Shown: piece after piece, positions 57,510 through 63,462 of the stretch | How the letters are laid out: each line of letters starts with the position of its first letter | How positions within the stretch are numbered: position 1 is the first letter of the stretch | NCBI GenBank assembly: GCA_030426685.1 | Contig: JAUHYC010000004.1 | Coordinates: forward strand, 62,001 to 126,000 | Reading direction: 5' to 3' | DNA length: 64,000 bases | Origin: Alphaproteobacteria bacterium | Lineage (GTDB): Bacteria; Pseudomonadota; Alphaproteobacteria; Rhodobacterales; Rhodobacteraceae | Notes under the pieces: model-generated | Databases searched by the model: none | Seen by the model: only the letters and a program-made list of their open reading frames with translations | What the model was told of the DNA's origin: nothing | Translations under genes and position numbers: made by a program

Positions 57510-59240
57510 ATGCGGGTTTACGACGCAGTAGTTGCCGCGCTTGAAACAATCGGGGTCGATGCCGCCTATGGCGGGGCCGGCGAAAATGCCGCTGGGCTCA
57601 TGCTTGCCCTGGATGCTTCTGAAAAGATCAGACCGGTGATTGCAAAAAACGAACAGGGCGCGGCCTTCATGGCCTGTGGTCATGCAATGTTTACCGGTAA
57701 ACTCGGTGTCTGTTTCGCCACCGCCGGACCAGGCGCTTTCAACCTGCTCTCGGGCATGTGCGTGGCACTAACAGACAGTTACCCGCTGCTGGCAATCAGC
57801 GGTTATTCGACCGTTGCCTGGCAAGGGCGTGGCGGGTTGAACGAAACTTCGGGTCTGGCGCGCACGCCGGATTCCCGGATGATGTTCCGTGCCGCCGCCA
57901 AAAAAGACCCCGAGACCGGCGAACCTGCGGATTTTCTGGTCACCGATCCCGATGATCTGATCGATACGCTGCAGAAGGCCATCGACATAGCCTTTGAAGG
58001 GCGGCCCGGCCCGGTACATGTTGCTGTCGCGGAGGATATCACTGATCCGAAGGTCGAAGTGACGAATTTCCGGCCGCTGAACGAACCGCAGCGAGGCGTG
58101 ACACCCGATCCTGAAGCGTTGGACAGAGTTTCAAAAGCACTTGAACAGGCAATCAAGGCGGAAAAGACGGTCGTCTTGCTCGCCGGCTTTGGCGCGATCC
58201 TGGCCGGGGCGAACGACATCACCAAATCGTTCCTAGAGCGGTTCCAGATACCGTTGCTGACCACGATGGACGGCAAAGGCATCGTCGCCGAGGAAGACCC
58301 GCTAGCGATTGGGCTCTATTGCGATTCAGGCCACAAGGCGGCCTGGGATCTGTTTTCTGACGCCGATGTGGTGCTGGCCGTCGGTAATTCATTTGCGCAG
58401 CATGCGACCTTTGATTTTTTTGACGGGCTGTTCGATGAAAAAACGCTGATCCACATAAACATCGATGCGGGTGAGTTCGACAAGTTTTACAAAGCAGATC
58501 ATGTGATCCTCAGTGATGCCCGACAGGCGCTGGAGGGCCTTTTTGAACGCCTCGACGCGGTGATCGGTCCTGTCCCAAAGCGGGACTATCGGCCAAAGGA
58601 CTATGACGAACGCTTTATCATTTCACCCCAGAAGCAGCTGCATCCGGGTGAGATGGTCCAGAAAATCTCTCAGCTTCTGCCACCGGGTGGGGTCGTTCTG
58701 GCTGATGCAGGCGCGCATGCCGCCTGGGCCGGGTATTACTTGGAACTCAAGGAGGGCCAGAATTTTCGCAAGCCCGGCACCTACGGGCCGATGGGCATCG
58801 GTGTCTGTGGGGCGATCGGGGCAAAATACGCCGAAATGCACCGCCCGGTGGTTGCTGCGGTCGGCGATGGATCTTATTTGATGAGCGGTTTCGAACTGAT
58901 GACTGCGGTGCAATACGACATTCCCGTGGTCTGGGTCATTTTCAACGACCGCGAGTTCAAGCTGATCAAGCTTTATCAACTGTCCGCCTTTTTCAAGACC
59001 GGCCTGACCGAATTCGACAATCCCGATTACGCCGCCTATGCCCGCGCCTGCGGCGCCGATGGGTATGTCGTCAATCAACTTGATGAGTTCGAGAAGGCGT
59101 TCACCGCCGCCCTGTCAAGCGGCAAACCCTCTCTCATCGATGCACGGATCACGCGATTGGCTTTGCCGAATTACTCACCGCATCCCGAAGGGGTGCTGGC
59201 GGCGATCTGGAATGGCATTCGCACACGGTTTGGGTTGTAG
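57510..59240 (+). CDS. Thiamine pyrophosphate-dependent enzyme (acetolactate synthase/2-hydroxyacyl-lyase superfamily)
   Basis: AAYGGAGENAAGLMLAL...KNEQGAAFMACGHAMFTGKLGVCFATAGPGAFNLLSG; TPP motif region VAAVGDGSYLMSGFELMTAVQYDIPVVWVIFNDREF. Confidence 0.88.
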   Translation: MRVYDAVVAALETIGVDAAYGGAGENAAGLMLALDASEKIRPVIAKNEQGAAFMACGHAMFTGKLGVCFATAGPGAFNLLSGMCVALTDSYPLLAISGYSTVAWQGRGGLNETSGLARTPDSRMMFRAAAKKDPETGEPADFLVTDPDDLIDTLQKAIDIAFEGRPGPVHVAVAEDITDPKVEVTNFRPLNEPQRGVTPDPEALDRVSKALEQAIKAEKTVVLLAGFGAILAGANDITKSFLERFQIPLLTTMDGKGIVAEEDPLAIGLYCDSGHKAAWDLFSDADVVLAVGNSFAQHATFDFFDGLFDEKTLIHINIDAGEFDKFYKADHVILSDARQALEGLFERLDAVIGPVPKRDYRPKDYDERFIISPQKQLHPGEMVQKISQLLPPGGVVLADAGAHAAWAGYYLELKEGQNFRKPGTYGPMGIGVCGAIGAKYAEMHRPVVAAVGDGSYLMSGFELMTAVQYDIPVVWVIFNDREFKLIKLYQLSAFFKTGLTEFDNPDYAAYARACGADGYVVNQLDEFEKAFTAALSSGKPSLIDARITRLALPNYSPHPEGVLAAIWNGIRTRFGL

Positions 59241-59256
59241 ACAAGAGGAGAGCACC

Positions 59257-62082: not shown

Positions 62083-62085
62083 GAA

Positions 62086-63462
62086 ATGCCAGGGAACAAG
62101 GCCCGGACCGGGTTGGACTCATTTCTAAACGCTCCGCTTGCGCGAACGTTGTGGAACCGGCGGACAAAGCGCGTCAGTCGCGGGTCAGATGTCGTTGCCG
62201 GTTCGCTAAGCTGGACTTCTCAGAATGACCGCGCGCCCCTGTCGCCCCTGCAGGAGGCGATCCTGATCGCCGCAACCGGGGCTAGTGGCCTTACGATGCC
62301 GGACCGGCCTTTTTTTGATGATGAAAGCGGCGATCCGATCATGTCCAAGCCAAATCTGGTGATGGAAGGACGTACCGCAGGCAGCCCCGATAACGCTCAG
62401 GGCACTCATTTCTTCATGATCAATGACAGCGGCACCTACTTTCTACGTCGCCTCGATCTGCTTGAAGGGGGAACCGGGAACTGGACGCCTGAGGTTCTGA
62501 TCGAGCGCGCGGAACAGGCGAAGGTACGACTCCTCGACCGGCGCATTGATGTGCCGGAGGGCATGCGTGATTTTCCGGCCTATCTGGATTCAAACCGGTT
62601 TCTGTCGAATACACCCGGGTCCACAATCTTCTTTCCCGTCGTTGACCTGTCCTACCAATACATCAATGCCCTTATGTATATCCTGACCCAGCCCGACAAG
62701 GCGCGCCCCGTCATAGTGGATGACCGCAACTTCTATCGTCCCGCCGGTGTGAAACAGTGGATCGACAACGGTTTTCTGAACCCCGATATCAAGATCCCGT
62801 TGGGTGTTCTTGGGCAGATGCGAACCCAGATCGAGGCCGATCTTCTGATCCAGAACCTGTTTCTGGTGACCGAGGCGCTGGGTCTGGGAGGCTGGATTCA
62901 TGCGGCCATTTCCCCACCGGTTCTGATGGGCGACCCAAAATTCAGTGATCGCTTTGGCACCATGATGGGCTTTGACTACGTTACACCCAAATGGCGGTTG
63001 ATGGATCTGTTGCGCTGGCACACTTTGCCGATCGCGGCGATGAAACATGTACGTGCCCACGCGGTGGGATTGCGCCACCACGGAGAACATCTGATCAAGG
63101 GCAAATGCCCGCCCTATTACCCGACTATGTCCGATGCCGTCGATGCCGTTGTCTCTGGCAAGTTCGGACCTGACGGGATCTACAAAAATGCGGCCGTGTT
63201 TGAGCAGATATACAAAGACGACTTTGGCAGCAAATATCTGGAAGAGGCCGCAGAATACGAACAGGACATCATCAATTGCGCCCGCGATATCTGCACCTAC
63301 ATCTATGAAACCCACGGGCGCTTCCCGGCCCATTGCGAGGCCATTCACGCACCCGGCATCTGGTTGCAGACCCATCGCGTGGAAAATGAATACTACGACG
63401 CCTTTTTCCGGAACGGTCTGACCGCAGCACAGCGCGAACACGACTCGAACTGGGAAGCATGA
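62086..63462 (+). CDS. Uncharacterised protein, possibly nitroreductase-like fold
   Basis: LSPLQEAILIAATGASGLTMPDRPFFDD and LLIQNLFLVTEALGLGGWIHAAI resemble nitroreductase segments; starts 3 bp after the previous stop. Confidence 0.6.
   Translation: MPGNKARTGLDSFLNAPLARTLWNRRTKRVSRGSDVVAGSLSWTSQNDRAPLSPLQEAILIAATGASGLTMPDRPFFDDESGDPIMSKPNLVMEGRTAGSPDNAQGTHFFMINDSGTYFLRRLDLLEGGTGNWTPEVLIERAEQAKVRLLDRRIDVPEGMRDFPAYLDSNRFLSNTPGSTIFFPVVDLSYQYINALMYILTQPDKARPVIVDDRNFYRPAGVKQWIDNGFLNPDIKIPLGVLGQMRTQIEADLLIQNLFLVTEALGLGGWIHAAISPPVLMGDPKFSDRFGTMMGFDYVTPKWRLMDLLRWHTLPIAAMKHVRAHAVGLRHHGEHLIKGKCPPYYPTMSDAVDAVVSGKFGPDGIYKNAAVFEQIYKDDFGSKYLEEAAEYEQDIINCARDICTYIYETHGRFPAHCEAIHAPGIWLQTHRVENEYYDAFFRNGLTAAQREHDSNWEA

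What the first reader, a model, noticed from the sequence alone, without database searches (positions are those of the whole stretch)
57510..63462. Candidate alpha-oxidation/oxylipin operon: TPP lyase-type enzyme, catalase-alpha-DOX fusion, nitroreductase-like protein
Three same-strand genes with 16- and 3-bp gaps. Alpha-DOX gives 2-oxygenated fatty acids, and TPP enzymes of this superfamily include 2-hydroxyacyl-CoA lyase, which cleaves 2-hydroxyacyl substrates to n-1 aldehydes. The third protein could act as a redox or processing partner. Together they form a plausible one-carbon chain-shortening or signalling-oxylipin pathway in a bacterium.
Basis: partly seen in the sequence, partly recalled or inferred. 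Interest (0 to 1): 0.82.

Follow-up and report, generated by a model that had tools for sequence, protein, structure and literature searches.

The report
Bacterial fatty-acid alpha-oxidation (oxylipin) operon
This marine bacterium carries a compact gene set, shared with unrelated soil bacteria, that probably oxidises fatty acids next to the acid group and processes the products, using a catalase-like/plant-type alpha-dioxygenase fusion whose neighbours are often fat-releasing enzymes, so it may be a bacterial counterpart of plant and animal oxylipin pathways.

Summary
Window 57510-63462 holds three co-directional genes with 16- and 3-bp gaps: a ThDP enzyme, a catalase-related/alpha-dioxygenase fusion (941 aa from ATG 59257) and a 458-aa protein with a nitroreductase-like fold. 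Catalytic residues of both heme domains and of the ThDP enzyme are conserved in their families. The genes travel together: all 43 loci carrying a close third-gene homologue (>=61% identity) also carry the alpha-DOX gene, and 30 carry the ThDP gene. These span Alphaproteobacteria, Nitrococcus and Actinomycetes, with rearranged order. Among 101 related genomes, the third gene and the ThDP gene occur in exactly the same six. The alpha-oxidation reading is therefore supported. The 2-hydroxyacyl-CoA lyase idea is not: the ThDP enzyme scores closer to acetolactate-synthase-type and BbmA/CsmA enzymes, and it is dispensable (absent from 9 of 11 Streptomyces genomes). New: unrelated lipases sit in or beside the operon (Tle1-like phospholipase overlapping the ThDP gene, patatin, Trypsin_2-hydrolase), and one Trypsin_2 subfamily adjoins it in both phyla. 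Best reading: a horizontally spread, lipase-fed oxylipin cassette, sometimes beside peptidase/NACHT conflict-type genes. No activity has been measured; substrate, product and role are inferred.

The parts
57510..59240 (+). ThDP-dependent enzyme, 576 aa (acetolactate synthase/BbmA-like superfamily)
   Evidence: Pfam TPP_enzyme_N/M/C; PDB BbmA 1.4e-69; Glu48 and GDG 452-454 invariant in 31 relatives
59257..62082 (+). Catalase-related / alpha-dioxygenase fusion protein, 941 aa (start ATG 59257)
   Evidence: fold search
59314..60366 (+). N-terminal catalase-related (minicatalase) heme domain, about residues 20-370
   Evidence: Best fold match 3e4y, 33-kDa catalase-related protein; R52, H55, R93, N130, Y327, R334 conserved
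60487..62061 (+). C-terminal alpha-dioxygenase domain, about residues 411-935
   Evidence: 4kvj/4hhr about 1e-102; H489, Y716, H719, R880/R881 invariant in 40 sequences
62086..63462 (+). ORF3, 458 aa, nitroreductase-fold protein of an unnamed family
   Evidence: linked to alpha-DOX in 50 of 52 loci
50100..52835 (-). GDSL-lipase/Trypsin_2/Exo_endo_phos protein, 911 aa; its Trypsin_2 subfamily lies next to the same operon in six actinomycete genomes (associated gene, membership inferred)

Best explanation
The operon encodes a fatty-acid alpha-oxidation (oxylipin) cassette. Free fatty acids, probably released by a neighbouring lipase, enter the C-terminal alpha-DOX domain; a Tyr716 radical removes a C2 hydrogen and O2 adds, giving a 2-hydroperoxy acid (inferred from conserved catalytic residues). 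The fused catalase-related heme domain then processes that hydroperoxide in tandem, by reduction or dehydration to a 2-hydroxy or 2-oxo acid or by cleavage to the n-1 aldehyde (inferred from the coral and cyanobacterial precedents; Phe54 in the distal pocket argues against plain H2O2 dismutation). ORF3 is a flavoprotein redox partner acting on the same product stream (inferred from fold and constant linkage). The ThDP enzyme, an optional branch, decarboxylates the 2-oxo acid or ligates the resulting aldehyde (inferred). Overall likelihood about 0.6; each downstream product assignment about 0.3-0.4.
For: Catalytic residues of both heme domains conserved (residue roles in PMC5617202). Of 52 loci drawn with ORF3, 50 carry alpha-DOX within 10 kb; all 43 close ones do; ThDP gene in 30. 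Gene order differs between phyla but linkage holds. In 101 relatives, ORF3 and the ThDP gene are in the same 6 genomes and, at these thresholds, ThDP is in none of the other 95. Plasmids: the 16 records with alpha-DOX >=60% are the 16 with ORF3 >=59%. An independent alpha-DOX cluster on a Streptomyces plasmid pairs it with a benzoylformate decarboxylase and a GlcD-like FAD oxidase, the enzymes expected for 2-hydroxy -> 2-oxo -> aldehyde. Lipases of different folds sit in or beside the operon: Tle1-like overlapping ThDP by ATGA in Actinomadura, one copy per genome; patatin; Trypsin_2-hydrolase between ORF3 and ThDP in Sinosporangium.
Against: No activity, substrate or product is known. The ThDP enzyme is absent from 9 of 11 Streptomyces genomes and, in the R. 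phaseoli operon, a RoxA-like cytochrome c plus a 195-aa protein stand in its place, so it is not obligatory. The catalase domain is absent in Reyranella (membrane-type segment instead) and in Microbacterium/Nocardioides. ORF3 by itself has no Pfam hit and FMN binding is unproven. Several loci have no lipase nearby.
Confidence: 0.6

Rival explanations
1. The ThDP enzyme is a carboligase: it joins the n-1 fatty aldehyde made by alpha-DOX to an acyl anion from pyruvate or another 2-oxo acid, giving long-chain acyloins (alpha-hydroxyketones) used as signals or antibiotics.
For: Closest scored families are acetolactate synthases (carboligases) and BbmA/CsmA; alpha-DOX supplies aldehydes; two ThDP paralogues side by side in L021, L022, L035.
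Against: Acetolactate synthase cut-offs are far from met (288 vs 538 bits); the independent Streptomyces alpha-DOX cluster uses a benzoylformate decarboxylase-type enzyme, which fits decarboxylation equally; no substrate data.
Confidence: 0.25
2. One reading: 2-hydroxyacyl-CoA lyase-type cleavage of a 2-hydroxy fatty acid, a catabolic one-carbon chain-shortening pathway.
For: ThDP enzyme belongs to the superfamily that contains HACL; alpha-DOX gives 2-oxygenated acids.
Against: HACL structures rank well below acetolactate synthase and BbmA (110 vs 165 and 238 bits); no acyl-CoA ligase in the operon; the ThDP gene is the most dispensable member.
Confidence: 0.08
3. The catalase-related domain only protects or tunes the alpha-DOX domain by removing H2O2, and the 2-hydroperoxide decays spontaneously to the n-1 aldehyde as in plant alpha-DOX assays.
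For: Catalase heme residues conserved; alpha-DOX is activated by hydrogen peroxide (title of a reference listed in PMC13049297).
Against: The residue before the distal His is Phe or Leu, not the Val of bovine catalase; the closest fold is the 33-kDa catalase-related protein, not a full catalase; catalase-related domains fused to or paired with fatty-acid dioxygenases act on the hydroperoxide.
Confidence: 0.2
4. A peptidase-controlled conflict (immune or cell-death) effector: a Trypsin_2, caspase or S8 peptidase or NACHT sensor activates a lipase, and the cassette turns membrane fatty acids into toxic or signalling oxylipins. (This is a claim about biological role and can be true together with the best explanation.)
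For: Same Trypsin_2 subfamily (1-2 of 9-25 Trypsin_2 genes per genome) adjoins the operon in Ruegeria and in six actinomycete genomes; caspase-FGE and patatin flank it in Rhizobium; AAA, trypsin, S8 and dCTP deaminase in Rhizobium Kim5; NACHT and YcaO in Nonomuraea.
Against: Conflict genes and mobile operons both collect in islands; Streptomyces and several other loci show no such neighbours; PADLOC finds nothing in the operon; the two conflict-system papers searched never mention peroxidase or catalase.
Confidence: 0.2

Closest known systems
Coral AOS-LOX / HPL-LOX fusions (catalase-related domain N-terminal, lipoxygenase C-terminal; PMC5617202)
   Same: N-terminal catalase-related heme domain fused to a C-terminal fatty-acid dioxygenase; same heme residues, including the 7-residue Tyr-to-Arg spacing
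   Different: The dioxygenase is a heme alpha-DOX, not a lipoxygenase, so the hydroperoxide is expected at C2; the distal pocket has Phe, not Thr; bacterial operon with ThDP and nitroreductase-like genes
Nostoc punctiforme 10S-DOX with catalase-related hydroperoxide lyase (Brash 2014, described in PMC13049297)
   Different: Separate genes, C10 oxygenation; no ThDP enzyme or ORF3 described there
Plant alpha-DOX1 with caleosin CLO3 (2-HPOT to 2-HOT, PMC7509404)
   Same: Alpha-DOX paired with a peroxide-processing protein and supplied by lipid breakdown; defence role
   Different: Different hydroperoxide-processing protein; eukaryotic lipid droplets; no ThDP enzyme
Cyanobacterial alpha-DOX (CalDOX, LepDOX; PMC8720084)
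   Same: Bacterial alpha-DOX
   Different: Characterised as fatty-aldehyde-forming alpha-DOX; fusion with catalase is not mentioned in that paper
Trypsin/S8 peptidase conflict systems (Kaur et al. 2020, System 3; PMC7159879)
   Same: Trypsin-like and S8 peptidases, alphaproteobacteria, effectors alongside
   Different: Core NucA nuclease not seen here; no lipid-oxidising effector in that paper

Membership tests
Fatty acid alpha-dioxygenase | Full-length similarity to plant alpha-DOX above other peroxidase-COX members | tested here: met
   2e-102 versus 1e-20 for the next family; fold ranks 1-4 are alpha-DOX
Fatty acid alpha-dioxygenase | Catalytic Tyr, distal and proximal His, Arg | tested here: met
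   H489, Y716, H719, R880/R881 invariant in 40 sequences; Y716 aligns with Tyr379 of rice alpha-DOX, Phe in 4kvl
Fatty acid alpha-dioxygenase | Oxygenates C2 of fatty acids | not testable with these tools
   needs enzyme assay
Catalase-related (minicatalase/cAOS/cHPL) proteins | Heme residues R64, H67, R102, N137, Y353, R360 of coral cAOS | tested here: met
   R52, H55, R93, N130, Y327, R334 in 38-40 of 40 sequences (list)
Catalase-related (minicatalase/cAOS/cHPL) proteins | Thr66 (cAOS) or Val (bovine catalase) before the distal His | tested here: not met
   Phe54 in 37 and Leu in 3 of 40; Val in the bovine catalase alignment; so neither an AOS nor a true catalase is claimed
2-hydroxyacyl-CoA lyase | Closest similarity to HACL/OXC within ThDP enzymes | tested here: not met
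   110 bits versus 165 (ALS) and 238 (BbmA)
2-hydroxyacyl-CoA lyase | Acts on acyl-CoA substrates | not testable with these tools
   no acyl-CoA enzyme in the operon
Acetolactate synthase | NCBIfam equivalog cut-off | tested here: not met
   288 bits against cut-off 538
ThDP-dependent enzymes | N-terminal catalytic Glu and GDG ThDP motif | tested here: met
   E48 and G452-D453-G454 invariant in 31
Nitroreductase superfamily (ORF3) | Pfam PF00881 match | tested here: inconclusive
   none in the window protein; 16 of 35 members, best E 0.0036
Nitroreductase superfamily (ORF3) | Nitroreductase fold | tested here: inconclusive
   Foldseek probability 0.99, E 0.013, top eight all nitroreductase-family; model pLDDT 77
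Nitroreductase superfamily (ORF3) | Binds FMN | not tested
   conserved RRT.R and GLG.W segments are suggestive only
Kaur et al. System 3 conflict system | NucA-type nuclease with trypsin-like peptidase | tested here: not met
   Trypsin_2 present; no NucA seen among the listed families of scanned neighbours

The most novel reading that the evidence does not exclude
A bacterial immune or cell-death system that works through oxylipins: a peptidase-controlled lipase releases membrane fatty acids and the catalase/alpha-DOX cassette turns them into toxic or signalling alpha-oxidised lipids, paralleling plant alpha-DOX defence.
Probability: 0.2. Interest if true: 0.92.

Novelty: new variant of a known kind. 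Interest (0 to 1): 0.72.

Why it matters
Oxylipins are well studied in plants, animals and fungi, but their roles in bacteria are largely unidentified (stated in the abstract of PMC5155153). A discrete, horizontally spread operon that joins a hydroperoxide-making enzyme to a probable hydroperoxide-processing domain, with recurring lipases, makes bacterial alpha-oxidation directly testable. It also offers an uncharacterised protein family (ORF3, at least 1898 homologues) and a catalase-related active site with an unusual distal Phe.

Tried and rejected
HACL membership of the ThDP enzyme: rejected on ranking. Defence-system match for the operon proteins: none in PADLOC. Literature on BbmA/CsmA, the closest solved ThDP relatives: nothing usable held, so their chemistry was not used. 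First neighbour gene calls in high-GC actinomycetes gave antisense ORFs; redone with codon-position GC. A class-wide sample (395 genomes) was too sparse for reverse co-occurrence: besides this genome only one full-length alpha-DOX (45%) and one distant ORF3. The ThDP gene convergent to ORF3 in three Streptomyces (PRK07586 type) may be chance and is not counted as support. Upstream genes 53057-57368 are shared with only three Ruegeria-group loci and are not counted as part of the operon. Promoter/terminator scan gave nothing clear at the gene boundaries. Brash 2014 (10S-DOX) is not held and was read only through a citing paper.
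Full report
OBSERVATION. Window 57510-63462 contains three + strand genes: a ThDP enzyme (57510-59240, 576 aa), a fusion (best start ATG 59257 behind AGGAG, to 62082, 941 aa) and ORF3 (62086-63462, 458 aa). Gaps are 16 and 3 bp. Pfam gives TPP_enzyme_N/M/C for the first and Catalase plus An_peroxidase for the second, nothing for the third. The window lies in a 3.87-Mb genome whose nearest homologues of these genes are in Ruegeria.

FUSION. The C-terminal half matches plant alpha-DOX structures at about 1e-102, far above lactoperoxidase or COX, and the predicted model ranks alpha-DOX first (model pLDDT 76). 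Distal His489, Tyr716, proximal His719 and Arg880/881 are invariant in 40 sequences; Tyr716 aligns with the Tyr that is mutated to Phe in rice alpha-DOX entry 4kvl. The N-terminal half is a minicatalase: the best fold match for that region is the 33-kDa catalase-related protein 3e4y. The heme residues listed for coral cAOS (R64, H67, R102, N137, Y353, R360; PMC5617202) correspond by spacing and alignment to R52, H55, R93, N130, Y327, R334, present in 38-40 of 40. The residue before the distal His is Phe (37/40) or Leu (3/40), whereas bovine catalase has Val in the alignment and cAOS has Thr66. I therefore claim neither AOS nor H2O2 dismutase. The architecture is well populated: nearly all of the best 120 of 4902 hits carry both Pfam domains, annotated only as 'peroxidase family protein', 'catalase' or hypothetical.

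ThDP ENZYME. Glu48 and the GDG motif are invariant in 31 relatives. Best PDB relatives are BbmA (238 bits) and CsmA (204), then acetolactate synthase (165); 2-hydroxyacyl-CoA lyase is at 110. NCBIfam equivalog cut-offs are not approached. It is a distinct ThDP family of unknown substrate.

ORF3. At least 1898 homologues, named hypothetical where named at all in the list. An AlphaFold model (pLDDT 77) finds nitroreductase-family folds as its top eight PDB matches (best probability 0.99, E 0.013); 16 of 35 members have weak PF00881 matches. Nitroreductase-like is thus probable, FMN binding unproven.

LINKAGE. A genome scan with ORF3 gave 52 loci. All 43 with ORF3 at >=61% identity carry alpha-DOX next to it or in the same gene string; the catalase domain is present in 41 (in L008 the contig starts inside alpha-DOX, in L009 a membrane-type segment replaces it); the ThDP gene is within 10 kb in 30. 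Order is ThDP, fusion, ORF3 in most Alphaproteobacteria and fusion, ORF3, ThDP in most Streptosporangiales. Pairwise distances of the four parts correlate at 0.95-0.98 over 29 loci, consistent with joint inheritance, though species history contributes. Among 101 related genomes full-length ORF3 is in 6 and the ThDP gene at E<=1e-100 in the same 6. On plasmids, the 16 records with alpha-DOX >=60% are the 16 with ORF3 >=59%; more distant alpha-DOX (42-47%) and ORF3 (27-28%) records do not overlap. Caveat: the 52 loci were drawn by ORF3, so they test ORF3-to-DOX better than the reverse.

VARIANTS. (a) 9 of 11 Streptomyces genomes with fusion and ORF3 lack a close ThDP gene. (b) Rhizobium phaseoli has fusion, RoxA-like cytochrome c, a 195-aa protein, ORF3. 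(c) Microbacterium/Nocardioides have alpha-DOX alone with ORF3 (37%), a GMC oxidoreductase, hydrolases and a P450 whose best family is the CYP152 fatty-acid peroxygenase, below cut-off. (d) A Streptomyces plasmid has alpha-DOX, hydrolase, P450, GlcD-like FAD oxidase and benzoylformate decarboxylase (over its cut-off) without ORF3 nearby. Variant d is what a 2-hydroxy acid to 2-oxo acid to aldehyde route would need, and it suggests, by analogy only, that the ThDP enzyme here acts on 2-oxo acids.

LIPASES. Unrelated lipases recur. In three Actinomadura loci a Tle1-like phospholipase follows the ThDP gene, with an ATGA overlap visible at the junction, and each genome has only one such gene. A patatin lies upstream on the same strand in Rhizobium and Phyllobacterium. 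In Sinosporangium a Trypsin_2 protein with a C-terminal hydrolase segment (SHSLG) sits between ORF3 and the ThDP gene. In the window, a GDSL/Trypsin_2/Exo_endo_phos protein (GDS, GGND and DxxHP blocks intact) lies about 4.7 kb upstream on the other strand.

PEPTIDASE AND CONFLICT-TYPE NEIGHBOURS. The window's Trypsin_2 subfamily has 1-2 strong members among the 9-25 Trypsin_2 genes in each of six Streptosporangiales genomes, and in all six one of them is the gene adjoining this operon. By my estimate, one or two specific genes falling within some 20 kb around a given operon in a 9-14-Mb genome is roughly a 0.2-0.5% event, and Ruegeria is a second independent lineage. Caspase-FGE genes (1-3 caspases per genome) flank the Rhizobium operon; AAA, trypsin, S8 and dCTP deaminase lie beside it in Rhizobium Kim5; NACHT and YcaO in Nonomuraea. 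These resemble, but are not shown to be members of, the peptidase conflict systems of Kaur et al. (PMC7159879). Residence in shared genomic islands could also explain them, and the Streptomyces loci do not show them.

MECHANISM. Shown: gene content, conserved residues, linkage. Inferred: alpha-DOX chemistry; tandem processing by the catalase domain, by precedent of coral fusions, the Anabaena catalase-LOX fusion and Nostoc 10S-DOX with its catalase-related lyase; redox role of ORF3; ThDP decarboxylation or carboligation; lipase supply. Plant alpha-DOX1 with CLO3, making antifungal 2-HOT from lipid-droplet fatty acids, is the nearest functional analogy (PMC7509404).

NOVELTY. Parts and principle have precedents; the catalase/alpha-DOX fusion with a dedicated nitroreductase-like family, an unassigned ThDP family and recurring lipases was not found described in the papers searched (open-access library only). 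I call it a new variant of a known kind, interest 0.72.

Noticed in passing
window 53057-57368: Four genes (339, 241, 300 and 490 aa, no Pfam hit over cut-off) just upstream are conserved next to the operon in three Ruegeria-group loci (L002, L005, L006) but not in L003, L004 or L007; possibly a co-transferred island.
   Followed up: partly
L101 (Sinosporangium, G479:C50:4000-22000), 5311-10873: Genes resembling the YcaO and NACHT neighbours precede a same-subfamily Trypsin_2 gene here, away from the alpha-DOX operon, so the trio looks like a module of its own that adjoins the operon in Nonomuraea.
   Followed up: partly
L089 (Streptomyces sp. NBC_00069 plasmid) 1631-9602: Separate alpha-oxidation-type cluster: benzoylformate decarboxylase, GlcD-like FAD oxidase, P450, hydrolase, alpha-DOX.
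   Followed up: partly
L009 5627-8266: Reyranella alpha-DOX has an N-terminal hydrophobic, probably membrane, segment instead of the catalase domain, and a GMC oxidoreductase gene upstream.
   Followed up: partly
L088 3277-4985 and 8232-9348: Phyllobacterium ThDP gene and ORF3 are each split into two annotated ORFs, as if frameshifted; the fusion gene is annotated whole.
   Followed up: no
L096 5015-10705: AAA ATPase, trypsin-like, S8 peptidase and dCTP deaminase genes directly upstream of the R. phaseoli-type operon look like a defence island.
   Followed up: no
L021, L022, L035 (about 11400-14970): Two ThDP paralogues in tandem after ORF3, 52-58% identical to the window enzyme.
   Followed up: no
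window 45626-49995: Fatty acid desaturase (45626-46672, -) and Rieske/VanA-type oxygenase (48931-49995, +) lie about 8-12 kb upstream; no link to the operon was tested.
   Followed up: no
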